A stretch of 20,945 nt of DNA from a virus. Positions 54 through 18,087 of this stretch are shown here, one piece after another. Each line of letters begins with the position of its first letter. Within the stretch, counting starts at the first letter, position 1. The DNA is taken from IMG/VR virus record IMGVR_UViG_3300020165_000186, positions 1-20,945 of that record. One strand, written 5' to 3'. Under the pieces are notes generated by a model that did no database searches, was not told where the DNA came from, and saw nothing but the letters and a program-made list of their open reading frames with translations. A program made the translations under genes and the position numbers.

Positions 54-66
54 CAACGCACAAAAT
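54..66 (-). promoter_or_regulatory. Conserved late motif, copy 1 (candidate phage promoter)
   Basis: Read on the minus strand this is ATTTTGTGCGTTG, followed by C. It matches copy 2 (10941-10953) over 14 bases and copy 3 (18076-18087) over 12. It sits in a 67-base gap between the gp16-like gene and the next leftward gene, about 44 bases before that gene's start codon. No good sigma-70 -10 box lies at the right distance, which fits a phage-specific promoter or operator better than a host promoter. Its function is inferred from position and recurrence. Confidence 0.5.
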
Positions 67-77
67 ATTTACACAAT

Positions 78-3000
78 TTATGGCCTGTTAGGTAATTGCC
101 CTACAATATCTTTCATCGTGTCTTTAATTACATCACCTGTAGCTACTGTTTCTATAAGAGGAAGCATATTTACAAATTTCTTTGCGCCATCTCCTACATC
201 ACCTTCAATCATAAGCTTTATTGATCGCATCATTTCCAATGTCCAATCTGCTGGTGCGCCACCTACACTTACTGCTGCACCTAATGGATCGTATCCACCG
301 CTATATTTTGGCTGTATTGGAAAACCACTATCAAAACCAAACTCATGTGCCATTGATAGCGTTCTATAAAGCATATCGCTTTGTAGTGCAGCTATACCTG
401 ACATATCAAAAGATCTCATTACTTTATCTTCTATATCCATTTTTTCCCAAGCCCAGTCAGGTGTGCGGAATTTTGTAATACTATATCCAAGTATCATTGC
501 TACAGCTATATGAGCCGTTTTATTTCTTACAGCACCAGCTGCCATATTACCTGTAATTTTGTTTAATGCACCAACCACAAAACTATAAAAAGTAAATGGT
601 AATGCTAAGAAGCCAGATTCAAATCTAACATATCCTGGGACTCTAGAATCTTTTGGCATTTTATCATAGTATGGCAAAGTTCTAGCTATATGATCTGGTA
701 TATATGCTACACCATCCATAGTAATAGGTTTATCTTCTGGACCACCCATGATAACTCTATTCATTACACCCGATCTAAGTGCGTTTCTAAATTCAGTTAC
801 TGCCTCTACGTCAGTCCACGCTTCAGTGTTTGGCTGTATCAAGTCACCACCTTTAGATCTTTGATATGGCATTTTGCTTATACGTTTTGCCATTGCTGGA
901 GTTATATTATACCTAGCTAAAAATTCTTTTTCAAAATCTGAAGCTTGATTTTTTGTTAATCTAATTGATGACTCAATAATTGTATGACCGCGGACTATAC
1001 TGTCTAATATTTTCATACCTACAGTTACAGGGCCAAGTCCATTTGCTACAAAAAATGCATTGTTTAATTTATCAGGTACTGTTTTATTAAACATATTATT
1101 AGATAAACTTTCCATTAACCTTAAGTGTGTAGTTCCTTGTTTTAACTCTAAAGCTTCACCAGCTAATTTTAATTCGTTTGCACCAACGCCCCATTTAACA
1201 TCATCCATTAACCCTATAACTGTACGACCTAACACATTTAACTCATGATCCATAAATATAGATGCAGCGTCACCAAATGCTGCTACACCAGAACCACCAA
1301 GAAACGTCCAGCTTGTTGCTGTTCTAAGCGAATCTGCTATTTTTGTATCCCAAGCATCAGGTCGTTTTAATGCAGCTCCAACTACTCTATCATATGTATG
1401 CACATAATTTTTTATAAACTTATTTATTTTTTTAGGAGGAACATTATCTTTTTTCATATCATTGCGTAATCTATTAATTTTTTCCTCTAATGTCATAAGT
1501 TTGCCATTATCAGGATTTAAATTAGCTTTGTGATATTCTAGTTTTGGCGCAACTCTTGCACCATAGTTAATCATAAGTTCTTTAACGTCAGTAACTAAAT
1601 AATTTTTTATATCTTTATTAGGTATACTTAGTCTTCTAGAGACAAGAGGACCGCTGCGACCATAACCAGTAAAAATAGCGTCAATGGCATCTTCTTCTGT
1701 TTCCTCCATAATGTTTTCAATTGTTTCTTCTGCTCTACGATACAATGAATCTGGATCAGTTGCTAGTTTTTGCATAATATAAAAACCATTAGCATCTTTA
1801 CTAATTACAGTAGGATCTTTTTTATATGCCTCTATAAGAGCGTTTCTAAATCCATCTCTATCTTTGTGTATTTTTTTTCTATTAAATATTCTAGGTAAAT
1901 CATATTTAGTTTTTGCAGTTTTCTTGTCATTAAATTTAATAACTTCAGCTGCATTGTCTATTTTTGCTCTTATTTCTTTAATTGCTGTATTTAAATCAAC
2001 TAAACCTTTTTCCATTTTTTTTGTTAAATTTAATTTACTATGCGCTAATTGTAATTCTTCTATAGATTTAGCATTATTAATTGTGTCAAATTGTTTGTTA
2101 AAATTATCAATCTGATCTTGGTATTTTGTTATTGTATCTTGCACATCAGCTTTTAATTTAACTTGCTTAGATGTTAAACCTCTATTACTTTCTTGTGCAA
2201 TAATTGATCTTTGTATTACTTTTTGCTTATCTATAATAGCTTGCATTGCATCTATTTCAGAAGACATCCATCTTTTATTTTGATCAATTATTTTATTAGT
2301 AACGCTTATTACCTCAAACGCTCTACCTAAATCTTTATTGTAAGATTCTTCAAATACATCACGTTTATTTATTAAACCTATTTCTTCAAGCTCTTTACCA
2401 AATGGCTCAAAATACCCTCTTACAGCTTGCATAGCTTGCGCTTCTTGTGGAGATACTTTGTCGTATGGAACATCATCCATAATTAATTGACCAATATGGC
2501 TTTGCCATTCAGACGGAGGAAAAGCACTCATACCAATTCTTTTTCTTACACTTTCAATTGGCCCTGCAAGATTTACATTAAGAACTTCTGGTTTTCCTCT
2601 AGGGCTTACTTCTCTATAGCCATTATCAACTACTTCCATAGCTTTGTACCATTCGCCTTGTCTGCGACCAGCATTTATAAACACAGAATTACCAACACTT
2701 TTACCCATTTGATTTGCAACTAATGGTAATCCATTAGAACCACCAAGTAATAACATTTCTTCAGTATATTTATCTGGTATATCTTTATCTGTAACAGTTG
2801 CTTTTAGTGGGCTTGGTATCATTTTTCCAAACCAAGATTCATTAAACCATTTTCCAGTGTATGATAATGGAGTTCCATCTTTTGTTGGCCTTGAATTTAC
2901 ACTATTTAAAAATTGTTTATATTTTGTACTATAATTTCTAACTCTTACTTTTCCATTTCGTGGACGTTCAATATATTTTCCAAGACCATAGCCAAATGCA

Positions 3001-3668
3001 CTTGAGATTGCTGTATCAGCCATAGTGCTAAGAGAAGCAGCAAACATAATATCATCTACTTCATCAGGGTTTACGCCTATATCTGTAAATGCTGTTGTTA
3101 TATTATATGCACCACTTGTTACCGCAGCATCTAATGCAGCTATTTTTGATAGCTCTTTACCTGTATACCTTTTGCCTGTTAGCAGTGCATTTGCTCTAGC
3201 AACTTGCTTTAAGCTACCTTTAAGGCCACCTTTATATAAAGCATATCCTGTTGCTCTTGATAAATTTACAGCAACATATGGTGTAGCTATTGTAACTGGT
3301 AGCAATGGATCACTTACAAATGCAGTTAAAGTAGAAGCATTGTTCATAGATTCTTTATCTCTATTTTTTCTGCTAATATAATCTAATGCTGACAAAAAGT
3401 TTTCTTCGCTGCCTATTCCATACGCTCTTAAATATTGTGCGTCTTGTGAATAAAGATCGTTATTTTCAATATATGTTTCAATTCTATCATTTGAATCTGG
3501 ATCGTAAGGTGTATCACTTGTGTAAAATTTTAATTGCTGTAAAGGCGCAGAAAAAAGTCTACGTGATTGTGCGTTAAATGCTTGCCCATAACTTGTTTTT
3601 GTTATGTCTCTTGGTTTACCTTGAGTCTGAGAATATACTGGTGCTAATGGAATTTCTATATCTGCCAT
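78..3668 (-). CDS. Internal virion protein, T7 gp16-like (DNA-ejection protein)
   Basis: This 1196-residue protein is the last of three internal-core-type genes. In T7, gp14, gp15 and gp16 form the core inside the capsid and are ejected into the cell envelope as a channel for DNA entry; T7 gp16 is 1318 residues. Visible here are hydrophobic or amphipathic segments near residues 113-146 and 205-230, a long charged helical stretch at about 470-580 that is probably coiled coil, and further hydrophobic segments in the C-terminal third, such as the stretch containing SWTFLGGSGVAAFG. I see no lytic transglycosylase (SLT) motif at the N terminus, where T7 gp16 has one. The start codon overlaps the gp15-like stop (TGATG), indicating translational coupling. 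The role rests on size, position and general character, so the exact family is inferred. Confidence 0.72.
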   Translation of the reverse strand: MADIEIPLAPVYSQTQGKPRDITKTSYGQAFNAQSRRLFSAPLQQLKFYTSDTPYDPDSNDRIETYIENNDLYSQDAQYLRAYGIGSEENFLSALDYISRKNRDKESMNNASTLTAFVSDPLLPVTIATPYVAVNLSRATGYALYKGGLKGSLKQVARANALLTGKRYTGKELSKIAALDAAVTSGAYNITTAFTDIGVNPDEVDDIMFAASLSTMADTAISSAFGYGLGKYIERPRNGKVRVRNYSTKYKQFLNSVNSRPTKDGTPLSYTGKWFNESWFGKMIPSPLKATVTDKDIPDKYTEEMLLLGGSNGLPLVANQMGKSVGNSVFINAGRRQGEWYKAMEVVDNGYREVSPRGKPEVLNVNLAGPIESVRKRIGMSAFPPSEWQSHIGQLIMDDVPYDKVSPQEAQAMQAVRGYFEPFGKELEEIGLINKRDVFEESYNKDLGRAFEVISVTNKIIDQNKRWMSSEIDAMQAIIDKQKVIQRSIIAQESNRGLTSKQVKLKADVQDTITKYQDQIDNFNKQFDTINNAKSIEELQLAHSKLNLTKKMEKGLVDLNTAIKEIRAKIDNAAEVIKFNDKKTAKTKYDLPRIFNRKKIHKDRDGFRNALIEAYKKDPTVISKDANGFYIMQKLATDPDSLYRRAEETIENIMEETEEDAIDAIFTGYGRSGPLVSRRLSIPNKDIKNYLVTDVKELMINYGARVAPKLEYHKANLNPDNGKLMTLEEKINRLRNDMKKDNVPPKKINKFIKNYVHTYDRVVGAALKRPDAWDTKIADSLRTATSWTFLGGSGVAAFGDAASIFMDHELNVLGRTVIGLMDDVKWGVGANELKLAGEALELKQGTTHLRLMESLSNNMFNKTVPDKLNNAFFVANGLGPVTVGMKILDSIVRGHTIIESSIRLTKNQASDFEKEFLARYNITPAMAKRISKMPYQRSKGGDLIQPNTEAWTDVEAVTEFRNALRSGVMNRVIMGGPEDKPITMDGVAYIPDHIARTLPYYDKMPKDSRVPGYVRFESGFLALPFTFYSFVVGALNKITGNMAAGAVRNKTAHIAVAMILGYSITKFRTPDWAWEKMDIEDKVMRSFDMSGIAALQSDMLYRTLSMAHEFGFDSGFPIQPKYSGGYDPLGAAVSVGGAPADWTLEMMRSIKLMIEGDVGDGAKKFVNMLPLIETVATGDVIKDTMKDIVGQLPNRP

Positions 3669-6600
3669 CAGTTATTGTCCCCATAAGATAATTCTTTTCT
3701 TGCATCAAATATTTCTTTAATTTGCTCTTCTGTGTAAACCTGCAAAAGTTGTGGATATTCATCAAGAAGTTTAAGCTGTTCATAGCTTTTAAAAAATTCA
3801 CGCGATGCTAAAACTTCAATAAAAGATTTTGACCTTACAGATAAATCAGGACTCATTAATGCGCTACCATGTTGTTGATATGTAACAAATCTATCTTTAG
3901 CTTTTCCTTCTTCATCTGACGGAATTAAAGTGTATTGCTCTCCGTTTATAGGTATTTCTTCCCATCTATCAAAATCATTTATAAAACCTGCTATATATTT
4001 AGGTTGTCCATTTGCAAAAGAAACTGTGTCAGGTTTCCAAACAATAGACGCAATTAAAGTATCATAGCCTTGCCTAACTCTTTCTTGGTTATATAAATTT
4101 GCAGATGCATCATAAGAACCTTCTTGAAATCCCATTGACTCCAAAACTGTGCCAACTAACAAACCAGCATTCATACCAAGTATATCTCTAAATCCTTGTT
4201 TGACTTGATCAAAAGTTGTCGTTTCTCCTAGCAATGGGCTGTCTGGATTACTAGCAATTAAAGCATCTGTAAGATTGCCAACTGATTCTAAAAAGTCAGT
4301 TTTGCTTATATGTGAAGATATAGCATACTCAACTGCTCCATCTATAGTTGGTGCAATAACATTAGAATCTGCTTTTGCGCTTATGTCTTTTGTATAATCT
4401 TGTATATATTCATTAACATATTCATCTGTTATAATGTTTCCTCTAGCTTTAGCCATTTTTAAACCAGCTATTATTTGCGCTTTGTAATTTGCACTCATAT
4501 TTTTATCATCAAAATAACGAATTAAGTTTTTGTATTTTTTATTATCTTTTGACAAATCAATTAATATATCTTGCTCAACATTTCCTTCATACGCATTAAG
4601 TTCAAACATTGCTGTAGAAGGAAGTATGCCTTCTTTTTTTGCTGTATAATGGGCAGCTGCTAATTTGTTGTAAGCACCTTTGCTAATTTTATTCTTTAAT
4701 CTATCACCTACATATGGTGTTCCAGCAGATGTTGTTTGTGCATTTGTATATTGTGACCACAAACCTGCTGCTGTATTTATATCATCTTCATTTTGTGAGT
4801 TTACTACATTTTCAAAATAAGTTTTTACAGCTGGAAACATATTATTATTACCAAGCTCTTGAAATAACTCTTCATACATTTTTATATTACTAGAATTTAT
4901 TAATAAATTTTCACCATAAACTTGATCTTGATAAAATTTAAGATCGTCTTCTGGTACTTGGCCTTGGCCTTCCATTGTAATACCAATAATGTTTAATCTT
5001 TTATTGGTTAAATTTGTATCAATTTCACGTTTTATATCATTTAGTCTTGCTTGTATGGATCTATTTACCACTGTTGGTATGTCATCAAATGCATTTCTGT
5101 AAGCTGTAAGTACATATTTACCATCATCAGATAATGCAGCCTCATCGTGTAGAGTTGGATTTTCAAGCATACCTTTAATTTTTATTAATTCATTATAAGA
5201 CACACCTCTTTGCCTTGCTAACCTATTCATAGTATGACCAAATATAGTACCTAAAGAATCTAGCTTTGATTGTTGATCTTTAAATTTACCATTTAATATT
5301 GCTTTTTGAAATTTAGTATAATCATTTACAGGGTCTTGTGATGTAGCCATGTTTCTTAAATTATTTTGTATTTGTTTTTCTACTTTATCTATAACTAAAG
5401 AATCTCTTGTTCTTATAAATGTAGCTTTAGTTGTTAAATATTTTACTAAATCACCCCTACCTTTAACATCCATATCTATAATAAATTGTGCTAACTCGCC
5501 TGTATTTTCAAATAGTTCGTTTCTTTGTATTTGATGTTGGTCAAGCAATGCAGTTAAACTAACTACATCTGGATTTGGTTTATTTAATTCAAGTTGAAGG
5601 TTGTTTATCTTTTCTTCATCATCTGAAGCAAAATCTATTTTCATAGATATATAATGTGTTAATAAACCTTCTTTAACTGCAGCCCTTGTATCAACAGGTA
5701 CACCTTTTACTAATTCATTTATTTGCTCAACTGTTGTTACTGAACTTAATTTTGGAATTAATAATGTTGTATAATTATCTTTTGCAGTTTCTATATATTC
5801 TTCTGTTCTAACGCTAGAATTTTCTAATGCATTAGCTAATGTTTCTGGTTTAGTATCTAACAGTGCATCTATAGTTAATTGTCTTAATTCAAAATTTTGT
5901 ATAGTTTCTGGTTTACTTAATAAGCTAAGAAATTCTTTTTGTTGCACGCTATCAAACTCTGCGTATTGTTGTGCTAAAGATGTGTGCGCTGATAACAATT
6001 GTAAGCTGTCTATTTTCTCCATTCTTTGTGTGTATTGTGGAAATGTAAGACCGCCAGTATTTTTTAATCTTTCGCTACGCGCTCTTTCTATATCTAAATT
6101 TTCTAACACATCAAGATGTGAAGTTGTACCGCTTGTTACAGCTTCTTTAATTGAAGCCATATGATTATAGCCAACAGTAAGATCATTTAACAAAATAGAT
6201 TTTCTACTATTTTCTATTTCTTCTGCTTTCATAGAAGTATATGTTTTAGACGCATAAGCTGTACCAGACTCATTTATATAACGACTAAAGTAAGTATCTT
6301 CTCCATCTGCGTTAATCATGCTAGCAACATGACTACTAATTAATTCATTATAATGGTCTGCATTTCTTGCAAATTTTGCATAGTGTGCGCCTTGCGCAGC
6401 TAACTCTTTGTCAACAGATTCTTCAAAGCGTGCATTAATTATTTCTTGAAATGAACTTGCTGCAATTTGTCCATATTCTTCTGGTGGTTGATATACTTTT
6501 GGTTGATTTGTTTTTGGGTCTAACGCAACAATGTCACTAGAAGACAATGACATAGCTTTTTCCGCACCAATTTTATTTGCTTCTACAGCTGCACTTTTAA

Positions 6601-6727: not shown

Positions 6728-6736
6728 GTTTTATTC

Positions 6737-9947: not shown

Positions 9948-9973
9948 TTCTTCAACCTATATATTGGAGTTAA

Positions 9974-9991: not shown

Positions 9992-9997
9992 AAAATA

Positions 9998-10807
9998 TTA
10001 GTTGTTGTCAAGAACTTCGTAAACGCCATTGTTGTCGATTACTACTGAACCCATTGACATCATTGATGTTGCTAGGTGTGCAACCTTTTGCGGTACATAG
10101 TTAAGCTCTGTTTGAACATCAGAGTTAATACCGATACCAACTGATGATGTATGGTAAGCAAAGTTCTTACCACCAGCTACAGCAGACGTTGAGAAGATCT
10201 TAAATCCTAAGAACTCTTTCATTGTCATACCACCAGCAAATGGTAGGCTTTGTGGCCCAACATAGTCACTTGATGCGAACTCGTTGATGTTGAACAAGTC
10301 AGTGTATCCAGCTGGAGACATAGCAATATAACGCTGTCCGTCTTCTGGAATGTCAGCTGTACCCATTGTTTCAAACAATGTTAGTAGGTCACCTTTAACT
10401 AATGCACCTGCTGTGTCAGCGATTTGCGTTGAGTTTGCACCAGCATCCATAGCTGCTGTAATTAACTCATCTGTTTTGCGGCCTAATGCAGCAGCAGCAG
10501 ATTGAGCTACAACTTGACGCTCATTGATGTTGATCTTTAATTCGTCCAACTTATCAATGTATTCCGCTGCGTAGTAGTCAGCCATTGTGACTTCTACGTT
10601 AGTGTGCGCTAGTTCCATCGCTGTAACATCTCCGTTACGCGCTTTGGTTGACGCTGTGCCTGTTCCGATTTTCTGGAATCTTGCCACTGATGCAGATACA
10701 TTTGTTGAACGTACTGTGTTGCGAAGCTTAGAACCCATGCGTTGATACGCCATGTGGACTTCAGTTTCGAACTGCTTAATAAAAGCTTGGTCGATTGTAT
10801 TAGCCAT
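9998..10807 (-). CDS. Major capsid protein
   Basis: A 269-residue coat protein in the expected place between scaffold/gp13-like and tail tubular A. It has an N-terminal helical region (AFIKQFETEVHMAYQRMGSK), a beta-rich middle (RFQKIGTGTASTKARNGDVT), a long alanine-rich helix (ERQVVAQSAAAALGRKTDEL), and late in the chain AYHTSSVGIGINSDVQTELN, typical of HK97-fold phage coats where the final segment describes surface loops. It is much shorter than T7 gp10A (345 residues) and looks more like the compact capsid family found in many marine podoviruses. A good ribosome site (TTAGGAAAGAAAAATG), its own upstream motif and the downstream terminator suggest high expression as a single unit. Confidence 0.88.
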   Translation of the reverse strand: MANTIDQAFIKQFETEVHMAYQRMGSKLRNTVRSTNVSASVARFQKIGTGTASTKARNGDVTAMELAHTNVEVTMADYYAAEYIDKLDELKININERQVVAQSAAAALGRKTDELITAAMDAGANSTQIADTAGALVKGDLLTLFETMGTADIPEDGQRYIAMSPAGYTDLFNINEFASSDYVGPQSLPFAGGMTMKEFLGFKIFSTSAVAGGKNFAYHTSSVGIGINSDVQTELNYVPQKVAHLATSMMSMGSVVIDNNGVYEVLDNN

Positions 10808-10840
10808 TTTTCTTTCCTAAATATAAAGTTTCGGTTACTC

Positions 10841-10874
10841 GGGTATCCGTTCCTTCACATCGACAAGGGTATCC
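10841..10874 (-). repeat. Direct repeat in the capsid leader
   Basis: GGGTATCC occurs twice on the plus strand (10841-10848 and 10867-10874) within the 78-base gap ahead of the capsid gene. On the capsid mRNA these are two GGATACCC boxes 18 bases apart. The function is unknown. They may form part of leader structure or a binding site. The repeat is short, so chance is possible. Confidence 0.35.
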
Positions 10875-10885
10875 AAATGGGCCTT

Positions 10886-11407
10886 TCAGTGCATCACGGG
10901 CCGTGATGTTTCACTATAAGCACTTTTTTGTGGTGAAATGCAACGCACAAAATCAACATAATGATTAGAATTAAACTCAGTTACACCTATTGCTTCAAAT
11001 CCTAGCCATGCTGCCCAGTCCAACATAAACTGGTGATCACTCAATATACGCATACACATTTCGTCCTGTGTTCTATCAAAAAATGTAACTAACATACGTG
11101 ATCCACGCGCTATAGATGTAAAGTTTTTCTTAATATTCTTAGAAAACATTGCAAAAAACTGCGGTGTTTCTCTACCATCTTCGTACCAAAGGCCAGATAT
11201 AGCAGTAAATACTTCACCTTCTTTGCGTACTAAGTAACAATCAGAGTATTTCATCATCTCTTCAATGCATTCTCTGACATTATGATAGCCAAGGAGATTT
11301 ATCTCCCTGACATTTTCTGGTGCTAGGTTAGCAATAACCTCTTCAACATGATCTTTAGTAAAAGGTGTTAGGTAAAAGTTACCACGCTTTATTATCTTAG
11401 CTTCCAT
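10886..11407 (-). CDS. GNAT-fold virion-type protein, resembling T7 gp13
   Basis: A 173-residue protein with the layout of the T7 gp13/acetyltransferase-like family. It has a strand with a small-molecule-sensor look (SDCYLVRKEGEVFTAISGLW, residues 55-74), then a basic helix (FSKNIKKNFTSIARGSRMLV), FFDRTQDEMCMRIL, and WLGFEAIGVTEFNS before a final strand. T7 gp13 (138 residues) is needed for core assembly but has no shown enzyme activity. Here the gene sits between scaffold and capsid, not after the tail tubes as in T7. It overlaps the end of the scaffold gene by 11 bases. The late motif and a perfect 7-bp hairpin lie inside its 3' end, so its last codons double as the capsid leader. Confidence 0.6.
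   Translation of the reverse strand: MEAKIIKRGNFYLTPFTKDHVEEVIANLAPENVREINLLGYHNVRECIEEMMKYSDCYLVRKEGEVFTAISGLWYEDGRETPQFFAMFSKNIKKNFTSIARGSRMLVTFFDRTQDEMCMRILSDHQFMLDWAAWLGFEAIGVTEFNSNHYVDFVRCISPQKSAYSETSRPVMH
10892..10908 (-). promoter_or_regulatory. Perfect hairpin in the capsid leader
   Basis: CATCACG-GGC-CGTGATG on the plus strand (the same inverted repeat on the minus strand) forms a 7-bp stem with a 3-base loop. It lies about 33 bases downstream of the late motif copy 2 and about 85 bases before the capsid start, within the last codons of the gp13-like gene. A hairpin near the 5' end of a phage mRNA commonly protects it or marks a processing site, as in T7. There is no U run, so it is not a terminator. 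Confidence 0.55.
10941..10953 (-). promoter_or_regulatory. Conserved late motif, copy 2 (candidate capsid promoter)
   Basis: On the minus strand it reads ATTTTGTGCGTTG then CATTTC, matching copy 1 over 14 bases and sharing TTC three bases further on. It lies inside the gp13-like coding sequence (codons for Asp-Phe-Val-Arg-Cys), 134 bases before the capsid ATG. T7 has its strongest late promoter, phi-10, at the equivalent place. Embedding in coding sequence means part of the match could be forced by the protein, but the identity to two non-coding copies argues for function. Confidence 0.5.
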
Positions 11408-12128
11408 AAAGCTTCTTAAAGCCAGCCTCTACTTGCCGAACAAATGCAGGGTCATTCTTACTCCAATACCTCGGGTCTTGCATCATTTCCTTTAGACTGT
11501 CTTCACTTATTCCAGCCGCAGGTGTTGCATCTCCAGTAAAGGAACCATCTTTCATAGCTTCTTGTATAGCCTCCATAGCTATAATACCCTCATGCGTTTC
11601 AAATAAACGCTCTATTGCTGGCATAGTTTCTTTGGGGAAAAACTTAGTAGCGAACATCGATGCCGCTTCAATCCGCTGATCAGAGTTTTCCCCCAGTTTT
11701 GCAGCTTCAGCATCGAGGTCAGGAGCAGAACCATCCATCGTCTGAAGATACATCTCAATACCTTTTTCGAACTTATCTTGTCCAAATCCATTGTCAAATG
11801 ATTGTTCAGCCCACCATTTGAGTAGCTCATTGTCTACAGCTTCTTCGTCATTAACAAAGTCTGGTAGTGCATATTCGCCAGCAGATGCAGGTCGATCAGC
11901 ATTTTTTGTAGAATCATACTCTTCTTGGAACTTAGCACGCAGATCTTCTTCCTTTGTGCCTAGCTTAGACTCTAGTTCTTTATACGCTTTGGCTAAATCT
12001 TCGCCACTATTGTACTTCTCAGGCAACCATTCTGGTCTAGCTGGTGCTGTATCTTCAGCAACTACAAAGTCACGCTCCGCAGTTTCCCCATGTGTTGATT
12101 GTTCTGACTCTGTTGGGATGTCATTCAT
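11397..12128 (-). CDS. Capsid assembly scaffolding protein
   Basis: A 243-residue, strongly acidic protein directly upstream of the capsid region; T7 gp9 is 307 residues. After a disordered acidic N terminus it has the family-typical segment RPEWLPEKYNSGEDLAKAYK (residues 31-50). It ends in a helix with KNDPAFVRQVEAGFKKLYGS, the kind of basic C-terminal tail that binds coat protein in scaffolds. The ATG follows AGGAGT by eight bases, and the stop of the 89-aa upstream gene overlaps it (ATGA). It overlaps the gp13-like gene by 11 bases. Confidence 0.85.
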   Translation of the reverse strand: MNDIPTESEQSTHGETAERDFVVAEDTAPARPEWLPEKYNSGEDLAKAYKELESKLGTKEEDLRAKFQEEYDSTKNADRPASAGEYALPDFVNDEEAVDNELLKWWAEQSFDNGFGQDKFEKGIEMYLQTMDGSAPDLDAEAAKLGENSDQRIEAASMFATKFFPKETMPAIERLFETHEGIIAMEAIQEAMKDGSFTGDATPAAGISEDSLKEMMQDPRYWSKNDPAFVRQVEAGFKKLYGS

Positions 12129-12394
12129 TTGTTTTTACTCCTATGTGCATGTGATATGCGGCGTTCAACTAGGCCAACAACGTATCGTTGACCTTCGTGA
12201 TGCCGCAGTTCTTCTGTAGTCACATTAGGCCCATGTACCATTTCAATAGTAATGGAGCGCAAATACTTTAAGACAGCCTCACCAGCAGGGGTAGTAAATA
12301 TTTCAGCAATATTCTGGCTTATCTGCAGATCTTGACTTACTGCTCGCTGATAACCATCGACTCCAATATTAACCTTGTTGCTCAACCATCTCAC
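12125..12394 (-). CDS. 89-residue virion-module protein, possibly Bbp19-like
   Basis: This small protein sits between portal and scaffold and overlaps the portal 3' end by 26 bases. It contains IAEIFTTPAGEAVLKYLRSI and later TTEELRHHEGQRYVVGLVER. A pattern of Phe-x-x-Thr-x-x-Gly...Val-Leu...Leu followed by a Glu-Gly-Gln-Arg helix is one I associate with the small Bbp19-like proteins found beside phage portal genes; their role is unknown. The ATG has a poor ribosome site (AGGGTGAG), so translation probably depends on ribosomes finishing the portal gene. The family assignment is from memory and unconfirmed; the gene itself looks real. Confidence 0.7.
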   Translation of the reverse strand: MRWLSNKVNIGVDGYQRAVSQDLQISQNIAEIFTTPAGEAVLKYLRSITIEMVHGPNVTTEELRHHEGQRYVVGLVERRISHAHRSKNK

Positions 12395-13910
12395 CCTGTT
12401 GTTGTTGCGCTTGTTGTTGCGCCATTTGTTGCGCTAATGCAGCTATTTGTTTACGCTGTTCTTCATCTCGAATCAAGCTTTCAGGTACACCAAACTTTTT
12501 AGCTAGATGTATAGCTGTTTGCTCACCATCAATTAGTAGCTGCAACATCTCTGGCCCAAATGTACCAGCAACCATCTCTAAGAACCTACCAACACTAGAA
12601 ATATCTTGGTTAGATTGCGCTTGAGCTAGCGGAGATACAGAACGTATCTTAACTTCACGTCCATTTACTGTTGGTACATCTATGCGTCCTTGCTTTTTAA
12701 GGATGTAAATAACGCGCTGTAGTACAGGTTGTACTAATTCAGCTTGTAACCTACCAAAAGCAGCACCCATACGCCTAGAAAGGTCTGCCATGCGCTCTGC
12801 TACTTCTGTTGCTGACGCTGGTGTCTTGTCTGGATTGCCCAACATATCGTTATATAGCGCACGTTTAATGTTTTGACGCATATCACCTAGCACTAACTGG
12901 GCTACATCAAAGCTACCTGCTGAGTTTATAGGCTGTAATCCGCTGGAACCCATAGCTTTTGGTATGATAGATCCTGGGACTAACTGTATTGTATCTGGGT
13001 TTATTACGCCATCATCTTCCATTTGGTATACACCAGAGATAGCCATCTGTGCATTCTCAAGTATCATTTCAATGGTAAGATTTGTAGTTTTTATAGCAGA
13101 TAATGCGTTAATTAATGGGCCACGTCCGTATACTTCACCTGCGCATTTAGACCAACGGAAGCAAATAAATGGATTTGATCCATTACCTACCATTTGTTTG
13201 TAGTTTAACACAGTATTCGTAGTCATACAGAACGCATAACTTAGATATGCTTCCTGATTCTTTGCAGAGTAGTCACGGCACACAACTTCTAGTACAGTTG
13301 TTGTCTTATCTGACCCCATATAATTCATAACTTTAGGGTCTAATGTACCATTTGGGTACATCATTTCTAAGTGATCGTACTTTACACCCTTACGCTCACG
13401 GAAAACATGATCAATTCTATCATCAGGGCCAGTATCTAGCACCACATGAGGCAATGGTATCGCAGAAAAGTTAACAGGATTAAGAGCATCGCCCTCTTCT
13501 ACGCACAAAACCCCAGTACCAACAGCTAAATCCATGAAGGATTCGTGTACTTCTTGGCTAAAATTAGAGTTTTGTAGTATCTCAAAAACGTATTCTGTTA
13601 CCTCGTCAAGCTCGTTATCAACAGATTCACGCTGATTTGGAGGAACCTCACTACCAGCCATGAGATCAGCCCACCTAGCAAAATTAGGTACAAGCCCAGA
13701 CTGGAGGCGACTAGCAAACTCTTGAACACCCACCACCGCAGTCTCGTCAAATATGCGATCATCGCGTCTTTGCCCAGCAGTTTCAGCGTAAAAACTCTCA
13801 CGTTGAGGTAGTGCATACTCATAGCACTCCTCGAACAACGGAACCCAGTTCTCGCGAAAGGACTTGGCTTTCTCATACTTTTGTATGTACTGCTTGGCAA
13901 CTTTTTCCAT
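12369..13910 (-). CDS. Portal protein (head-tail connector, T7 gp8-like)
   Basis: A 513-residue protein (T7 gp8 has 536) that forms the dodecameric ring through which DNA is packaged and ejected. Family-typical segments are the helical N terminus ENWVPLFEECYEYALPQRES, then DDRIFDETAVVGVQEFASRL and LQSGLVPNFARWADL, and later EVYGRGPLINALSAIKTTNL. A clip or wing helix region with TPASATEVAERMADLSRRMG follows. The C terminus is a glutamine-rich tail (residues about 490-513) encoded by CAA/CAG runs. Start and stop are both overlapped: the ATG overlaps the stop of the MCG gene (TAATG), and the 89-aa gene begins inside its end. Confidence 0.93.
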   Translation of the reverse strand: MEKVAKQYIQKYEKAKSFRENWVPLFEECYEYALPQRESFYAETAGQRRDDRIFDETAVVGVQEFASRLQSGLVPNFARWADLMAGSEVPPNQRESVDNELDEVTEYVFEILQNSNFSQEVHESFMDLAVGTGVLCVEEGDALNPVNFSAIPLPHVVLDTGPDDRIDHVFRERKGVKYDHLEMMYPNGTLDPKVMNYMGSDKTTTVLEVVCRDYSAKNQEAYLSYAFCMTTNTVLNYKQMVGNGSNPFICFRWSKCAGEVYGRGPLINALSAIKTTNLTIEMILENAQMAISGVYQMEDDGVINPDTIQLVPGSIIPKAMGSSGLQPINSAGSFDVAQLVLGDMRQNIKRALYNDMLGNPDKTPASATEVAERMADLSRRMGAAFGRLQAELVQPVLQRVIYILKKQGRIDVPTVNGREVKIRSVSPLAQAQSNQDISSVGRFLEMVAGTFGPEMLQLLIDGEQTAIHLAKKFGVPESLIRDEEQRKQIAALAQQMAQQQAQQQQGEMVEQQG

Positions 13911-14155
13911 TAACTAAACCGATCTAAGAATCCACCGCCACCTGCTCTAAATAAAGAACGGCGACCTGTACCGCCACGCATAGCTTTACTTTCAGCGCGT
14001 GACTCTACTGCTTCACCAATGTCTTCGCGTTTCTTTTCTGCTTTTGCTTCAGCTTCTTTACGTTTCGCATCTTCTGCTGCTATACGAGCATCCGCTGCTT
14101 CTTTCGCCTCGCGATCTATATCAGCTTGGCTTCTTCTGCTACCGCCACCACACAT
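13910..14155 (-). CDS. MCG-type small protein, third member, between terminase and portal
   Basis: An 81-residue protein starting MCGGGSRRSQ, continuing as a highly charged alanine/glutamate/lysine helix (residues about 11-60) and ending GGTGRRSLFRAGGGGFLDRF. The ATG at 14155 was chosen over an upstream in-frame start because AAGGAGA lies six bases before it. The M-C-G N terminus and an Arg-Ser-Leu motif near the C terminus recur in the two tandem proteins at 16986-17204 and 17222-17413. Similar short proteins occur in T7-like marine phages beside the portal; I know of no established role. The stop overlaps the portal start, so it belongs to the virion operon. Confidence 0.82.
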   Translation of the reverse strand: MCGGGSRRSQADIDREAKEAADARIAAEDAKRKEAEAKAEKKREDIGEAVESRAESKAMRGGTGRRSLFRAGGGGFLDRFS

Positions 14156-14217
14156 ATTATTCTCCTTGGTTGTTTTACATTGGTTGGCATAGAAAAGAAA
14201 AGTTTTCAATGCACAAT

Positions 14218-15741
14218 TTAGAGTCTTGACCACAATCCTTGTCTACGCTGTGGCTTCTTTCGGTTGTCAAATACATTAAAACTGCCCTTTGCCACTGTTG
14301 CAGAGGCTGGTTTCTGGTTGTTTATTAAGGCTCTACCCTCTCCAGCACCTAACATTTGGTACTGTAGCGCATCATGTACGTGCGAAAACATATTTTTATC
14401 AGGCTTATCTGCGTATCTTTCGCCAGAAACCTCCATACGTCTGTACTGATACCCACCTTCAAAGCCTTTTATTAGCTGCTGACAGCGCGGATCTATAAGA
14501 AATGCTGGCTTTCCTTCTGTCATTTTCTGTAATTGGGACGCAACACTCTCTAATCTTAGATCAACAGAATTAGACGGAGCAGGGAAAGCACGCAAACCAG
14601 CACCACGCAGTATGTGAAAGGGCGTTGATTCATCAGTCTGAGCGCGGAAATCACCAGCAGGGTCGCCATATATAAATACCTCCGAACAAGTTGAGAACCT
14701 AGTAGCTATCTCTTGGCGTAAAACCTCTGCAAATCTAACGATACCCATGTCAAATGCAACGATTTCTTGCTGTATTAGCCACCTACCACGTACCTTTTGC
14801 CCCATTGTAGCAGCAGGTGTAAGCCCAAAATCTATACCAATGTATAAGGGAAGCCCAGCAGCGATAGGTATTTCTTCTTTTGCTACGTGCATATCGCTAG
14901 CAAACATCTGATAGATAGGTTTACCCTCTTGGATAGAGCCTAATTTGTTCATAACGTATACGTCAATCCAGCTTTTTGTCTTACCGCGTATCAAATTAGG
15001 GTAGTAATCCTGACGCATATACTCCCTGTTCTCTGCTACATCGTTAGGAACGTAGTCATCTATCTCGCCATCTTCGTCAAACTTCTCGATCATACCACTA
15101 GGTTGGGTATAAAACGACCAGTTGTCAGGTTTTACTAGCATTTTTGCTTGTTCTCTGGGGATATGATCAGGCACTGGCACTTCGCCAGACATGATAGGCC
15201 ACCAATGATCCTCTTCTGGAGCGTTGGTATCACAGATAACGCCTGTCCAACTAGCTCCACCATCGCGCATAGAAGGGAAACGACCTACACGCATGGTACA
15301 TGCATCAATAATTGACTTAGGAATTTCTCTAGCTTCGTTAACCCATACGCCTGTAAGCTCTAAAGATAGCAATTTCTTAACATCTTCTGGCCTATCAAGT
15401 GCTAAGAAGAGGACTTCAAGCTCCAGATCGCCTTTTTTAATCATATGTGTATAGGGAACTGACCAAGTAAACTTGCCCCATTGTTCCTCTGGGAACCAAT
15501 CAAGCCAAGTTTTTATGGTTGTGGTCTTTAACTGTGGGTTTGTATTACGGATTATTGCCCATCTGCTGCGGCGTATCCCTTGTTTATTAGGCTTCTGCGC
15601 TAATGCGCGTCTAAAAATTTCTACGCAACAAGACACTGACTTGCCAGAACCAACAGGCCCACGAATGCCACGGAAGAATGTATCGTCTTTCATAAACGCC
15701 TTAACAACTTCGCCATCTGGCCTGTATTTAAAATCTATCAC
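14218..15741 (-). CDS. terL: Terminase large subunit (packaging ATPase/nuclease)
   Basis: This 507-residue motor translocates DNA into the procapsid and cuts it. The ATPase has Walker A GPVGSGKS (residues 28-35) and a Walker B-type strand LTGVWVNEAREI (129-140) with Asn-Glu where many have Asp-Glu. The RNase H-fold nuclease has its three acidic positions: D304 in IGIDFGLTPA, D360 in YGDPAGDF and D457 in HVHDALQY. The start is GTG, overlapping the stop of the 64-aa gene (GTGA) without a good ribosome site, so translation is probably coupled. A 62-base gap with no evident feature separates it from the next MCG gene. Its place in the late operon downstream of the small subunit differs from T7, where terminase genes come last. 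Confidence 0.95.
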   Translation of the reverse strand: MIDFKYRPDGEVVKAFMKDDTFFRGIRGPVGSGKSVSCCVEIFRRALAQKPNKQGIRRSRWAIIRNTNPQLKTTTIKTWLDWFPEEQWGKFTWSVPYTHMIKKGDLELEVLFLALDRPEDVKKLLSLELTGVWVNEAREIPKSIIDACTMRVGRFPSMRDGGASWTGVICDTNAPEEDHWWPIMSGEVPVPDHIPREQAKMLVKPDNWSFYTQPSGMIEKFDEDGEIDDYVPNDVAENREYMRQDYYPNLIRGKTKSWIDVYVMNKLGSIQEGKPIYQMFASDMHVAKEEIPIAAGLPLYIGIDFGLTPAATMGQKVRGRWLIQQEIVAFDMGIVRFAEVLRQEIATRFSTCSEVFIYGDPAGDFRAQTDESTPFHILRGAGLRAFPAPSNSVDLRLESVASQLQKMTEGKPAFLIDPRCQQLIKGFEGGYQYRRMEVSGERYADKPDKNMFSHVHDALQYQMLGAGEGRALINNQKPASATVAKGSFNVFDNRKKPQRRQGLWSRL

Positions 15742-15932
15742 TTATCTAATATCTTATTATCTATGCCAACTTTAATCATTCTTGCTGCAATTTCGGGGCC
15801 AATAGCCTCAATAATCTTGTCAGCTTCGTGATCTGTCTGAAAATCTTTAGGATGATGCTTCATATGTACTATGCGCACCACCCTACGTAGTGTATCGCGC
15901 TCTTTAGGCTGCAATGTATTGAGAAAACTCAC
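15738..15932 (-). CDS. 64-residue protein coupled to large terminase
   Basis: I do not recognise this protein. It begins at GTG (cac on the plus strand) with AAGGA about ten bases upstream. It is helical and mixed-charge, with histidines (VRIVHMKHHPKDFQTDHEAD). Its stop overlaps the terminase start (GTGA), which suggests coordinated production with TerL. A role in packaging is possible from position only. The two-base gap to the previous gene and continuous operon make it a real gene. Confidence 0.7.
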   Translation of the reverse strand: MSFLNTLQPKERDTLRRVVRIVHMKHHPKDFQTDHEADKIIEAIGPEIAARMIKVGIDNKILDK

Positions 15933-15934
15933 AG

Positions 15935-16114
15935 TTACTTTTCCTTTTTAAAAGGTGTCGCTCTAGTTTTTCGTTCTTTCTTAGGCTTTGCTGCCTCTTT
16001 TACCTCTAGCAGAGGCTTAGAATCGCGAGTACGCGTCTTTCCAGAGTAAGTATTGCCAGCTAATTCGTGTGTGTCACCCACATATGGGTCACCATTTTTA
16101 AATGTCCAAGCCAT
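15935..16114 (-). CDS. 59-residue lysine-rich protein
   Basis: This unrecognised protein starts MAWTFKNGDPYVGDTHELAG and ends in a lysine/arginine-rich tail (residues about 40-59). Its ATG overlaps the previous stop as TAATG, and its stop is two bases before the next start. The short aromatic/glycine N terminus resembles small phage proteins that begin with a Trp-x-Phe-x-Asn-Gly turn, but no function is known to me. The basic tail could bind nucleic acid. Confidence 0.65.
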   Translation of the reverse strand: MAWTFKNGDPYVGDTHELAGNTYSGKTRTRDSKPLLEVKEAAKPKKERKTRATPFKKEK

Positions 16115-16263
16115 TATTTATCCTTTTTCAATAAAGTTTTCTTCTTAGGGAAGCCAGCTTTCATATTTTTGTAAGCCTTGTCGCTGATAGTAGAGTTTTT
16201 CTTAGATCTACTTGTTCCCTTTTTCTTACGTGCATTCATGTTTGCATATAATCCATTAGCCAT
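16114..16263 (-). CDS. 49-residue highly basic protein, marine phage type
   Basis: This protein starts MANGLYANMNARKKKGTSRS and has 16 Lys/Arg among 49 residues with two Asp. The GLYAN-N-x-R/K-K start followed by STISDKAYKNM is a pattern I recall from many small proteins in marine phages, always unassigned. Overlaps at both ends (TAATG) couple it to its neighbours. The charge suggests DNA or RNA binding, perhaps packaged with DNA, but this is inference. Confidence 0.68.
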   Translation of the reverse strand: MANGLYANMNARKKKGTSRSKKNSTISDKAYKNMKAGFPKKKTLLKKDK

Positions 16264-16700
16264 TACTTCATCCTTTCGCGCTCACTACGTCTAGAATTTT
16301 TAACTGTTTGCGGAGAAGCATTTGTTCTTGTGTCAAACATTCTTCCTTTAACAGTTTTGCCTTTGCTATCTTTTTCGCCCTTGTCAGTAATATAAACCTT
16401 GCTATCAATAGCTTTTAAGTCACCAATCATATGCTTTATTTTCTTTTCTTTAAGCAATAAAGACTTACGGCTTTCTTCGCCTTTAATTTTTCTTTTAGCA
16501 GCATCAAACCCAGCAGCAATAACACTGGCAACTTTTCTTGTAGACACAAGCCTTTCAACTCTTTTACCTTTTATTGTAGTAAAATCACCTGTAAACATTG
16601 ATCTACTTTCATAGCCTTTTGTATTCTTTAATTCTTTTTGTATTTTTTTTAATAATGTACGAGCCTTAAAATTTTGGCCTTCGCGTTTTCTATCAGGCAT
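16263..16700 (-). CDS. 145-residue basic protein of unknown function
   Basis: A lysine- and arginine-rich soluble protein with no recognised domain. Its central part (STRKVASVIAAGFDAAKRKI) could form an amphipathic helix. The N terminus (MPDRKREGQNFKARTLLKKI) and C terminus (NSRRSERERMK) are very basic. The start lies inside the end of the upstream gene, ATGCCTGA, with eight bases shared, and its stop overlaps the next start (TAATG). It may be a nucleic-acid-binding virion or packaging accessory, inferred only from charge and place. Confidence 0.72.
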   Translation of the reverse strand: MPDRKREGQNFKARTLLKKIQKELKNTKGYESRSMFTGDFTTIKGKRVERLVSTRKVASVIAAGFDAAKRKIKGEESRKSLLLKEKKIKHMIGDLKAIDSKVYITDKGEKDSKGKTVKGRMFDTRTNASPQTVKNSRRSERERMK

Positions 16701-16989
16701 TCTTTTTATTCCTTTTACTAATGGCTGCTGCTTTTGACTTAGCGTCAGCTTTTGACGATGCTCCCCATGCCTTTAGGCTAAGAAGAAGTCTAGTTGGTTT
16801 ACCCTTAGAGTCACGCTCTGGCCCCTTCATACCACCCATTCGTGCTAAGAAAGAAGCTCTCCTTGGGTTATCTCCAGACTTAACAGGACGTTTAAGCGTG
16901 CCACCCTTATAGCTTCTTCGACCTTCTTCATTAAGACCACCCTTGGGATTCTTCCCTGCTTTACGTGTCCATGCTGGAGTCTTACTCAT
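16693..16989 (-). CDS. 98-residue basic protein with PAWTRK-GKNPKGGLN motif
   Basis: Residues 5-20 (PAWTRKAGKNPKGGLN) followed by GDNPRRASFLARMGGMKGPE and LLSLKAWGASSKADAKSK match a small family widespread in marine phages and some bacteria. I recall it as a DUF (possibly DUF6321, not verified). Function is unknown. It is rich in Gly, Lys and Arg, with a C-terminal lysine/alanine helix. ATGA overlaps with the upstream gene and an eight-base overlap with the next indicate coupled translation. Confident as a gene, moderate as to family. Confidence 0.8.
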   Translation of the reverse strand: MSKTPAWTRKAGKNPKGGLNEEGRRSYKGGTLKRPVKSGDNPRRASFLARMGGMKGPERDSKGKPTRLLLSLKAWGASSKADAKSKAAAISKRNKKNA

Positions 16990-17204
16990 TTTGCATACGG
17001 CATTAACAATGATCTAGCTGTATTAGCAACCGACTTGTTAACGTCCTTCTTTTTCTTCTTAGGTATGTCAGCCATACCATCCTCAGTGCGCTTAACCTTA
17101 TCACCCACTGCTAGGGAAGGTAAGTCACCATAGTCTTTCTTGCCAGCCTGATAAAACTTTTCAGTCATTGCTGATACAGAAGTAGTCTTACTACCACCAC
17201 ACAT
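16986..17204 (-). CDS. MCG-type small protein, tandem paralogue 2
   Basis: This 72-residue protein starts MCGGSKTTSV and ends SVANTARSLLMPYAK. It is clearly related to the neighbour at 17222-17413: both have M-C-G, then (D/E)LPSL-x-V-x-x-K-x-KR, a lysine-rich linker and a C-terminal ARSLLMP. Two ATGs lie in a row; the second (17204) was chosen because it gives M-C-G as in the paralogue, with AAGGAGA eight bases upstream. The first (17207) is also possible. The function is unknown. The stop overlaps the next start (ATGA). Confidence 0.78.
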   Translation of the reverse strand: MCGGSKTTSVSAMTEKFYQAGKKDYGDLPSLAVGDKVKRTEDGMADIPKKKKKDVNKSVANTARSLLMPYAK

Positions 17205-17221
17205 CATTTAATCTCCTTATT

Positions 17222-17413
17222 CTATGTAGGCATTAAGAGTGACCTAGCCGCTTGACCCCTAGGCTTCTTAACATCTTTTGCTGCATCACCAGAAGACACA
17301 CGCTTTATTTTACTATCTACTGATAAAGAAGGTAACTCACTAGACTCAGGCTTATCTTCCTTCTTTGTCACCTTAACTATATCCTTACTTAGCTTACTCA
17401 TAGCACCACACAT
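17222..17413 (-). CDS. MCG-type small protein, tandem paralogue 1
   Basis: A 63-residue protein starting MCGAMSKLSK and ending GQAARSLLMPT. It shares ELPSLSVDSKIKR and ARSLLMP with the following gene, so the two look like a tandem duplication that has diverged in the linker. The ATG at 17413 overlaps the stop of the 35-aa gene (TGATG). An in-frame GTG one codon earlier would add a residue before Met-Cys-Gly and is less likely. After removal of the initiator Met, the N terminus would be Cys-Gly. The role is unknown. Confidence 0.75.
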   Translation of the reverse strand: MCGAMSKLSKDIVKVTKKEDKPESSELPSLSVDSKIKRVSSGDAAKDVKKPRGQAARSLLMPT

Positions 17414-17520
17414 CACTCAGTCTCCTTTGTATATCCACTACTCTTTAACGCCTTCTTAGCTGTAGAATTATCAGCACTGTTATCAAACGTCTCTGGAACC
17501 TTATCACCAAATCTACTCAT
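17413..17520 (-). CDS. 35-residue protein after small terminase
   Basis: A short hydrophilic protein, MSRFGDKVPETFDNSADNST then a lysine-rich end. The stop overlaps the ATG of the next gene (TGATG), which is the main support. The ribosome site is weak (AAGGG nine bases before ATG). It is separated from the small terminase by 108 bases with no gene, containing A/T runs and a C-rich tract. It is not recognised. It could be a leader peptide for the MCG genes. Confidence 0.5.
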   Translation of the reverse strand: MSRFGDKVPETFDNSADNSTAKKALKSSGYTKETE

Positions 17521-17616
17521 TTACAAAACCCTTTTTAATCCAAATATTTTTTCAAGCTTTTTTTAGTAATCATGTGAGTGAGGGACGTAACATAACTTAG
17601 TACCCGAGAGTTTTGA

Positions 17617-17628
17617 CCCCCCACCCCC
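17617..17628 (-). other. C-rich tract abutting the small terminase stop
   Basis: CCCCCCACCCCC on the plus strand touches the stop codon of the small terminase (17629-17631); on the mRNA it reads GGGGGTGGGGGG. It is very unusual in this AT-rich genome, and a second, longer C/T tract lies on the other side of the gene (18024-18046). A packaging recognition site or a guanine-quadruplex element are possibilities. Neither is shown by the sequence alone. Confidence 0.4.
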
Positions 17629-18006
17629 TTATCCTAAGTCTATTGACACCTTGATGTCCCCTGCCAATTGCACCTGAGATCTATCTATCGGTTTAAACCC
17701 TGCCCTGTCTAGTAAATCCTTGCTAGCTTCTAGCTGTACGTACTCACTCTTAGCCTTCCTAGATAGCCCTGCCAACTGGTGTACAGCCGCAGGAGCATGT
17801 CTGCTAAACTCCTTCGCCACCACTTCCATCATGTACTGTTGCACATGGGCTAGCTTCATACTCTTCTGTGCAGTTACTCTTCCGCTGTCGCCTTCAGCGT
17901 ATCCAGCTTCTTGACTGGCCTGAGTAAGATTACCACCATTTGCTACATACGCTTCAACCAATGCAGTCTGTTTATCTGTTAGTTTTCTTTGTGTGATGTT
18001 GCTCAT
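17629..18006 (-). CDS. terS: Terminase small subunit
   Basis: A 125-residue DNA-recognition subunit of the packaging terminase. Residues about 10-38 (TDKQTALVEAYVANGGNLTQ, then ASQEAGYAE) form the helix-turn-helix typical of terminase small subunits: a Lys-Gln-x-x-Phe/Leu-Val-x-Ala-Tyr helix, then Asn-x-Thr-x-Ala...Ala-Gly-Tyr. A helical oligomerisation part and a C-terminal beta tail (QVQLAGDIKVSIDLG) follow. The ATG at 18006 has GGAGA just before it; an open frame runs further upstream to 18273, but that stretch overlaps the promoter motif and has no ribosome site. It is the first gene of the leftward late operon. Confidence 0.88.
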   Translation of the reverse strand: MSNITQRKLTDKQTALVEAYVANGGNLTQASQEAGYAEGDSGRVTAQKSMKLAHVQQYMMEVVAKEFSRHAPAAVHQLAGLSRKAKSEYVQLEASKDLLDRAGFKPIDRSQVQLAGDIKVSIDLG

Positions 18007-18023
18007 ATTATCTCCAATTGTAG

Positions 18024-18046
18024 CCCCCCTCTCCCTCTCTCCCCCC
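18024..18046 (-). other. Pure pyrimidine tract in the small terminase leader
   Basis: Twenty-three bases of only C and T on the plus strand, with C6 at each end and CCC in the middle. The leader RNA therefore carries G6-AGAGA-GGG-AGA-G6. It lies 17 bases before the start codon, between the late motif and the ribosome site. Together with the tract at 17617-17628 it brackets terS. It could form a guanine quadruplex affecting translation, or mark a packaging site. Confidence 0.45.
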
Positions 18047-18075
18047 ATGTTTAGCACATCAATTATACTCTTTGT

Positions 18076-18087
18076 CAACGCACAAAA
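18076..18087 (-). promoter_or_regulatory. Conserved late motif, copy 3 (candidate late operon promoter)
   Basis: The minus strand reads TTTTGTGCGTTG, then ACAAAGAGTATAAT. It shares 12 bases with the other two copies and precedes the small terminase start by about 70 bases. The sequence also contains TTGACA and a perfect TATAAT, but only 5 bases apart, so they cannot act as one normal sigma-70 promoter. The TATAAT could work with a weak -35 further up. It marks the start of the leftward late operon. Confidence 0.55.

What the first reader, a model, noticed from the sequence alone, without database searches (positions are those of the whole stretch)
54..18087. Three-copy 12-13 base motif on the minus strand, each upstream of a late transcription unit
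TTTTGTGCGTTG occurs at 54-65 (minus), 10941-10952 (minus) and 18076-18087 (minus), ahead of the left-edge gene, the capsid gene and the small terminase. Copies 1 and 2 agree over 14 bases. All three point leftward. This fits a phage-RNA-polymerase promoter or a late-activator site with a consensus that I do not recognise. The motif is not palindromic.
Basis: partly seen in the sequence, partly recalled or inferred. Interest (0 to 1): 0.72.

Follow-up and report, generated by a model that had tools for sequence, protein, structure and literature searches.

The report
Late-gene promoter box in marine phages
A short DNA word in front of the structural-gene groups of a family of uncultured phages looks like the docking site of a small phage protein that switches those genes on, because the word and the DNA-reading part of that protein change and disappear together across related phages.

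Summary
The three copies are real, on the minus strand, at the stated places. Alone they are weak evidence: 35 of 300 shuffles hold some 12-mer three times. Comparison makes them strong. TTGTGCGTTG occurs 120 times in late sense and never in antisense in 80 related contigs, 851 kb. At three of the four site classes a TG follows at about -10 spacing. No phage-type RNA polymerase and no sigma factor above cut-off was found in the window or six relatives. The best candidate reader is an 80-90 aa Xre (HTH_3) protein encoded, in relatives, just past the window's right edge. All 23 box-bearing contigs in which its region is visible carry helix SL(I/V)HKWE. A sister group with another box (TAGTCCATTG) carries V(A/S/N)KWE in 14 of 14. 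Of 12 box-less contigs, 4 have no detectable Xre gene and 8 a different helix. I read the element as an Xre-dependent late promoter. Activation rather than repression is inferred; nothing was measured in cells.

The parts
18076..18087 (-). Box at site A, upstream of the small terminase (TTTTGTGCGTTG, continuing into TTGACA)
   Evidence: same place in 8 of 21 relatives with 200 nt upstream of TerS visible
18045..18056 (-). Extended -10-like element of site A (TGCTAAACATGG)
   Evidence: TG in 6 of 6 dereplicated A sites; position
17629..18006 (-). Small terminase gene
   Evidence: PHROG 2538 E 3.6e-12 and Pfam Terminase_2
14207..14216 (-).
   Evidence: box present in 39 of 39 TerL leaders visible in the window plus 80 relatives
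10941..10952 (-). Box at site B, upstream of the capsid gene and inside ORF 10886-11407
   Evidence: present in 77 of 78 capsid leaders visible in the window plus 80 relatives, the miss (L039) differing by one base
10913..10922 (-). Extended -10-like element of site B (TGCTTATAGT)
   Evidence: TG in 19 of 22 dereplicated B sites; position
9998..10807 (-). Major capsid gene
   Evidence: PHROG 3437 E 1.4e-58
54..65 (-). Box at site C, after the 1196-aa gene; the next gene starts with ATG at 8-10 and runs off the left edge (tail-fibre type MTINIA in relatives)
   Evidence: 12 of 12 relatives with the fibre leader visible
20775..20945 (+). Start of HTH85, cut by the window edge; in relatives Xre89 (candidate box reader) follows directly
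   Evidence: the visible 57 aa are identical in L327, which carries Xre89 with CTPSLIHKWE

Best explanation
The motif is the upstream (-35 region) recognition box of four leftward late promoters in a lineage of uncultured podovirus-like phages. SHOWN by sequence: a strictly oriented box at four homologous leaders, DNA-level constraint, a TG at about -10 spacing for sites A, B and D, and covariation and co-loss with one early gene. INFERRED: the early Xre/HTH_3 protein (Xre89, encoded just past the window's right edge in relatives) binds the box with its third helix and helps the host RNA polymerase start at an extended -10 promoter whose -35 is poor (TTGCAA, TTGAAA, TTGATN and the like; only site A has TTGACA). 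As Xre89 accumulates from the early operon, the terminase, capsid and tail-fibre units are switched on. Activation, not repression, is favoured because in relatives that lost the box the leader at site D has shrunk from a median of 61 nt to 11 nt.
For: Orientation: TTGTGCGTTG 120 sense, 0 antisense in 80 loci; 0 and 0 in 80 loci of the Hodr sister clade; first among 10-mers ranked by distinct sense minus antisense contexts. Position: of 136 sense hits to TTGTGC(A/G)TTG in the window plus 80 relatives, 77 are at B, 39 at D, 5 at C, 5 at A and 10 unplaced by script; by eye 7 of the 10 are C leaders at contig ends and 1 is a D leader. DNA-level constraint: codons TTT GTG CGT fixed wherever F-V-R-C is read (30 distinct contexts), and the box is kept where the preceding gene stops short of it. 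Second element. Reader. Helix 46-53 = PSLIHKWE in the model. Leader collapse.
Against: No start sites, binding or expression data exist for any member. The TG and -10 are not general: site C has TG in 6 of 10 (28 of 500 shuffle sets reach that), the -10 hexamer score is no better than shuffles at C and D (53 and 464 of 500 reach it), and box2 promoters show no TG at this spacing. Site A lacks the box in 13 of 21 relatives, some of which have it at D and B. Relatedness of contigs inflates the 23/0/12 table; the tree forces only four changes of the no-box label on well-supported branches, Hodr clade included. Xre loss means not detected by a profile built from box1 proteins; G036 has a weak hit (E 0.0015) to another HTH protein nearby. 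The window itself does not reach the Xre gene.
Confidence: 0.64

Rival explanations
1. The box is an operator at which Xre89 represses the late promoters early in infection (Cro/CI-like); host RNA polymerase alone uses the promoters otherwise.
For: Xre/HTH_3 proteins of this size are often repressors; nearest solved relatives include the P22 c2 repressor and HipB. Box and protein would covary in the same way. Site A has a consensus TTGACA -35 overlapping the box.
Against: At B, C and D the -35 is poor without help, and in box-less relatives the whole site-D leader has shrunk to a median of 11 nt instead of remaining as an unrepressed promoter.
Confidence: 0.16
2. The box is read by another factor: HTH85, the HTH protein after SSB, Zn106, or a host regulator.
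For: HTH85 and Zn106 lie next to Xre89 in the contigs checked, and a small HTH gene follows SSB in many contigs.
Against: HTH85 and Zn106 persist in box-less G036 and G037, and Zn106 in G034 and G035. The HTH after SSB has a different helix in each subclade while the box stays the same. A host factor does not explain the matched change of box and phage protein.
Confidence: 0.12
3. The element works in the RNA, as an antitermination or processing site in late leaders.
For: It lies in leaders, and the capsid leader downstream of it is a conserved structured RNA.
Against: The partner that covaries is an HTH DNA-binding protein, and a TG follows at promoter spacing.
Confidence: 0.05
4. A phage single-subunit RNA polymerase promoter.
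For: Oriented motif in front of late units; a GGGGGGAGAGAGGGAGAGGGGGG stretch follows site A.
Against: PF00940 0 of 7 records, T7 control positive. The second element has spacing that varies by one or two between site classes.
Confidence: 0.02
5. Chance repeat or coding coincidence.
For: The triple 12-mer alone is not rare; copy 2 encodes F-V-R-C.
Against: Strand asymmetry, four-site conservation, retention in non-coding contexts and fixed synonymous positions.
Confidence: 0.01

Closest known systems
T4 middle promoters (MotA box, sigma appropriation)
   Same: A phage-specific box takes the place of the -35 element in front of a -10, often with TGn, and an early phage protein reads it (passages of PMC2988021).
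   Different: MotA box is (a/t)(a/t)(a/t)TGCTTtA, 12 +/- 1 bp from the -10; here the box is TTGTGCGTTG and the TG lies 17-22 nt further on. The candidate reader is an Xre/HTH_3 protein. AsiA or MotA relatives were not searched for as such.
P22 c2 / C protein / HipB type HTH_3 regulators
   Same: Xre89 has an HTH_3 domain over the Pfam cut-off (31.3 vs 23 bits) and P22 c2 and C-protein chains among its matches in the PDB by sequence and by fold, where the best Foldseek E is 2.6e-3. That some C proteins activate transcription is recalled.
   Different: Those bind (near-)palindromic operators as dimers (recalled); this box is not palindromic.
Lambda Q / other dedicated late activators
   Same: One early-operon protein turning on late units (recalled).
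   Different: Q is an antiterminator at one late promoter (recalled); here four separate leaders carry the box.
Pelagibacter phage EXVC031P Hodr (OQ414635)
   Same: Best named relative: TerL 63.7% and capsid 53.3% identical, similar late gene order.
   Different: No TTGTGCGTTG; the nearest 10-mer has one mismatch, on the other strand (21607 +). Its Xre helix is VADSLITAWE.

Membership tests
T7-type phage RNA polymerase promoter | Phage encodes a single-subunit RNA polymerase (PF00940) | tested here: not met
   0 of 7 records; T7 positive at 9.9e-110. Some records are fragments.
T7-type phage RNA polymerase promoter | One contiguous promoter block at fixed spacing | tested here: not met
   Second block 17-22 nt past the box, shifting by one or two between site classes
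Sigma70 -35/extended -10 promoter | TGn-type -10 at -35 spacing | tested here: inconclusive
   TG enriched at A, B, D; weak at C. Hexamer score above shuffles at A and B only
Sigma70 -35/extended -10 promoter | TTGACA-like -35 | tested here: inconclusive
   TTGACA at site A in box-bearing relatives; weaker TTGNNN elsewhere
Activator-dependent (MotA-like) phage promoter | Box replaces or overlaps the -35 | tested here: met
   By spacing to the TG only
Activator-dependent (MotA-like) phage promoter | Transcription depends on an early phage protein | not testable with these tools
   Only co-occurrence, co-loss and covariation could be tested
HTH_3 / Xre regulators (candidate reader) | HTH_3 domain with a DNA-reading third helix | tested here: met
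   PF01381 over cut-off; helix 46-53 in the model, mean pLDDT 86.8
HTH_3 / Xre regulators (candidate reader) | Binds this box | not testable with these tools
   Helix-box covariation only

The most novel reading that the evidence does not exclude
A family of uncultured phages runs its structural genes from a multi-promoter regulon read by a minimal Xre activator, and this pair has been re-coded and lost as a unit: one lineage reads TTGTGCGTTG with SL(I/V)HKWE, another TAGTCCATTG with V(A/S/N)KWE, others further variants with (K/R)LVSKWE, with the visible sites switching together, while several lineages dropped both gene and boxes. That would be a natural series for a helix-to-DNA recognition code in which whole regulons were rewritten.
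Probability: 0.5. Interest if true: 0.76.

Novelty: new variant of a known kind. Interest (0 to 1): 0.62.

Why it matters
How uncultured phages without a polymerase of their own control late genes is mostly unknown. If true, this gives a defined promoter sequence, its likely reader, and a natural set of matched box and helix changes that a simple reporter can test. It also offers a way to predict transcription units in metagenomic phages.

Tried and rejected
Chance: rejected only after comparison, not by the shuffles. Phage RNA polymerase: searched, not found. Sigma factor: PF04545 gave one sub-threshold hit (11.7 bits), which falls on the Xre89 gene of G004. The HTH gene after SSB as reader: my first favourite, dropped because its helix varies while the box does not. 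HTH85 as reader: dropped because it persists without the box. Rfam: nothing at gathering score in the window; two sub-threshold hits in the capsid leader. The genome-contig scan gave 12 phage-like contigs filed under very different organisms, so no host is claimed. Phage MEP301 was fetched but not scanned for boxes. The named-phage collection was not searched for the box itself, only for Xre89 (one match, Hodr) and HTH85 (none).

Literature, held library only: 'pelagiphage' + 'promoter motif' 0 papers, 'EXVC031P' 0, P22 c2/Val33/recognition helix 0, RinA/ArpU 0. Two broader searches listed one and two papers, seen as listings only. So I found no print record of this motif, but most subscription journals are not held. 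Seen as passages: PMC2988021 and PMC8024684, which says no RNA polymerase was identified in phage MEP301.

Rows dropped or misjudged: near-identical leaders and sites were dereplicated. One search leaves out contigs without Xre or Zn106, or without a D or B site. L327 was scored box-less at D there because its TerL match is split; one search shows the box. L513 and L533 were scored box-less although TTTGTGCGTT lies further down a longer leader. In one search my pattern put L039 and two other contexts in the wrong frame. One search's site-D numbers are not used because of the query named below; one search recounts them from real TerL stops.
Full report
The three exact copies of TTTTGTGCGTTG are at the stated places and strand. 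The window is a 20,945-base virus record. By PHROG match its leftward genes include small and large terminase, head-tail adaptor (portal), head assembly, capsid, tail and internal virion proteins; the right end holds rightward small genes. By itself the triple repeat is weak: 35 of 300 dinucleotide shuffles and 48 of 300 codon shuffles contain some 12-mer three times on one strand.

Comparison makes it strong. Eighty capsid relatives were fetched, the best 80 of a capped list. In them TTGTGCGTTG occurs 120 times in late sense and 0 times in antisense over 851 kb; in 80 contigs of the Hodr sister clade it occurs 0 and 0 times over 878 kb. The full 12-mer occurs 48 times in sense and 0 in antisense. 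Ranking 10-mers by distinct sense minus antisense contexts puts this word first in the window clade. In the window plus the 80 relatives there are 136 sense hits to TTGTGC(A/G)TTG and one antisense: 77 at the capsid leader, 39 after TerL, 5 at the tail-fibre leader, 5 before TerS, 10 not placed by the script. By eye, 7 of those 10 are fibre leaders at contig ends, 1 (L075) is a D leader, and 2 are elsewhere (L056:220, L079:3209). The box is present in 39 of 39 visible TerL leaders and 77 of 78 visible capsid leaders, the miss (L039) differing by one base. For the fibre it is 12 of 12 and for TerS only 8 of 21, in a set that also holds more distant contigs. The window's own D copy is TTGTGCATTG at 14207-14216.

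The constraint is on DNA. At the capsid site the box usually lies inside the preceding gene and reads F-V-R-C. In the 30 distinct contexts that read so, codons TTT GTG CGT never vary, while a valine two codons before the box uses GTT 19, GTG 5 and GTC 2 times. In L027, L036, L037, L040 and L059 an in-frame stop lies just upstream and the exact core is kept. Box-less relatives still spell F-V-R-C in the frame I infer, but with GTT (L184) or GTA (L489, L502).

The shape of a promoter. Dereplicated sites show a second element: a TG 17-22 nt past the box's last base in 6 of 6 A, 19 of 22 B and 24 of 27 D sites, against shuffle means of 2.0, 6.0 and 8.7; 1, 0 and 0 of 500 shuffle sets reach this. 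Its commonest place shifts by one nt between D, B and A, as expected for two separately bound elements. A -10 hexamer score beats shuffles at A and B (1 of 500 each) but not at C (53 of 500) or D (464 of 500), and at C the TG is weak (6 of 10). In the window the box starts 79, 61, 143 and 53 nt before the start codons at A, D, B and C, which leaves room for a start site and a ribosome-binding site.

Who reads it. No phage RNA polymerase (PF00940, 0 of 7; T7 control positive) and no sigma factor over cut-off (PF04545, 0 of 7; controls positive) were found in the window and six relatives, some of them fragments. In relatives the early operon carries HTH85, Xre89 and Zn106 side by side; the window ends inside HTH85. 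Xre89 has an HTH_3 domain over its cut-off. Its predicted model (mean pLDDT 86.8) puts PSLIHKWE on helix 46-53, the third helix. Its nearest solved folds are HTH_3 proteins such as HipB, C proteins and P22 c2, none below E 0.001; P22 c2 is also near by sequence (E 4e-8).

Covariation. I looked for the longest word shared by the D and B leaders in 178 loci where both are visible. By my count of the list, 61 share a word of 10 nt or more, against a mean near 6 for random windows of the same contigs. The words are lineage-specific: TTGTGCGTTG (box1), (T)TAGTCCATTG (box2, relatives of L189), and A(A/T)(A/T)GTGCGTAT-like (L449, L453, L457); one of the 61 (L458) fits none. Box2 is also strand-specific: TAGTCCATTG 66 sense, 0 antisense in 58 loci. 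Of 52 contigs with the Xre neighbourhood and a D or B site, 22 have box1, all with SL(I/V)HKWE; L327 makes 23. Fourteen have box2, all with V(A/S/N)KWE. G029 (GTGCGTTT) has KLVSKWE; G040 and G041 (TTTTGTGCGTA at the capsid site only) have RLVSKWE. Twelve are box-less where visible: four with no detectable Xre (G034-G037) and eight with other helices (L084, G042, L188, L190, L485, G038, G039, L185). In this table no box1 contig lacks the protein and no box-less contig has HKWE. Many of these contigs are close relatives, so the counts are not independent.

Co-loss. In G036 and G037 the HTH85 and Zn106 matches lie 13 nt apart with no Xre between them; in G034 and G035 Zn106, Hjc, YqaJ, SSB and TerS are present but neither HTH85 nor Xre is found. 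G036 has a weak hit (E 0.0015) to a different HTH protein near HTH85. None of these four contigs (30.8-33.3 kb read, overlaps counted) holds TTGTGCGTTG on either strand; G035 has one antisense hit to the relaxed word. Sisters G032 and G045 hold the box. A maximum-likelihood capsid tree of 58 rows places box-less tips at several points inside the box1 clade; the no-box label needs at least four changes on well-supported branches of the whole tree, Hodr clade included. Part of the backbone is unresolved, so I claim several losses, not an exact number. In box-less relatives outside the Hodr clade the TerL-to-next-gene leader has a median of 11 nt (37 of 43 measurable; distant relatives included), against 61 nt in 56 box1 loci. 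That is why I favour an activator: a promoter that lost its activator is dispensable, whereas losing a repressor would leave a working promoter.

What remains unknown. I have no RNA or binding data for any member. Xre89 has one match among 50,697 named phage records, Hodr (39%), and HTH85 none. The host is unknown. The Xre89 gene of this very phage lies outside the window; L327, whose HTH85 is identical over the window's visible 57 residues, has CTPSLIHKWE. Box2 promoters do not show the TG at the same spacing, so the second half of the promoter may differ between lineages.

Noticed in passing
window 10808-10912 (-), capsid leader; 23-24 dereplicated relatives: The leader between box B and the capsid ATG is a conserved structured RNA. 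A hairpin covaries (three pairs with 7, 4 and 9 double changes), a long-range CCCG/CGG pairing shows compensatory changes, and a third pairing near the ribosome-binding site (0 of 401 strand permutations reach it) would make a pseudoknot, though several relatives lack it. No Rfam family.
   Followed up: partly
window 18024-18046 (-), before the small terminase: A 23-nt polypurine block GGGGGGAGAGAGGGAGAGGGGGG follows the site-A promoter. It is unchanged in 12 of the 13 closest relatives listed (other G-run pairs in L042, L044, L076, L182, L184, L185) and is present without the box in L035, L093, L099, L181 and L079; possibly a packaging site (counted by eye).
   Followed up: no
window 18781-18858: A 31-nt inverted repeat (84% complementary, 16 nt between arms) holding two TTGACTAT words lies at the divergence between late and early genes; a possible operator or terminator.
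   Followed up: no
site C in L010, L087, L089 and others: A second, partial TTGTGCG lies about 14-15 nt upstream of the box at the tail-fibre leader in several relatives.
   Followed up: no
gene after SSB in L085, L087, L093, L099, L384, L387, L361-L370 and others: A small HTH-like gene often follows SSB at the end of the early operon, but its sequence differs from subclade to subclade.
   Followed up: partly
L181-L192: Twelve contigs of this phage type are filed in MAGs labelled as an archaeon, Rhodobacterales, Flavobacteriales, Novosphingobium and others, which looks like mis-binning.
   Followed up: no
L346-L351: Six early-sense copies of TTGTGCGTTG are one inherited site in one subclade, with near-identical flanks.
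   Followed up: yes
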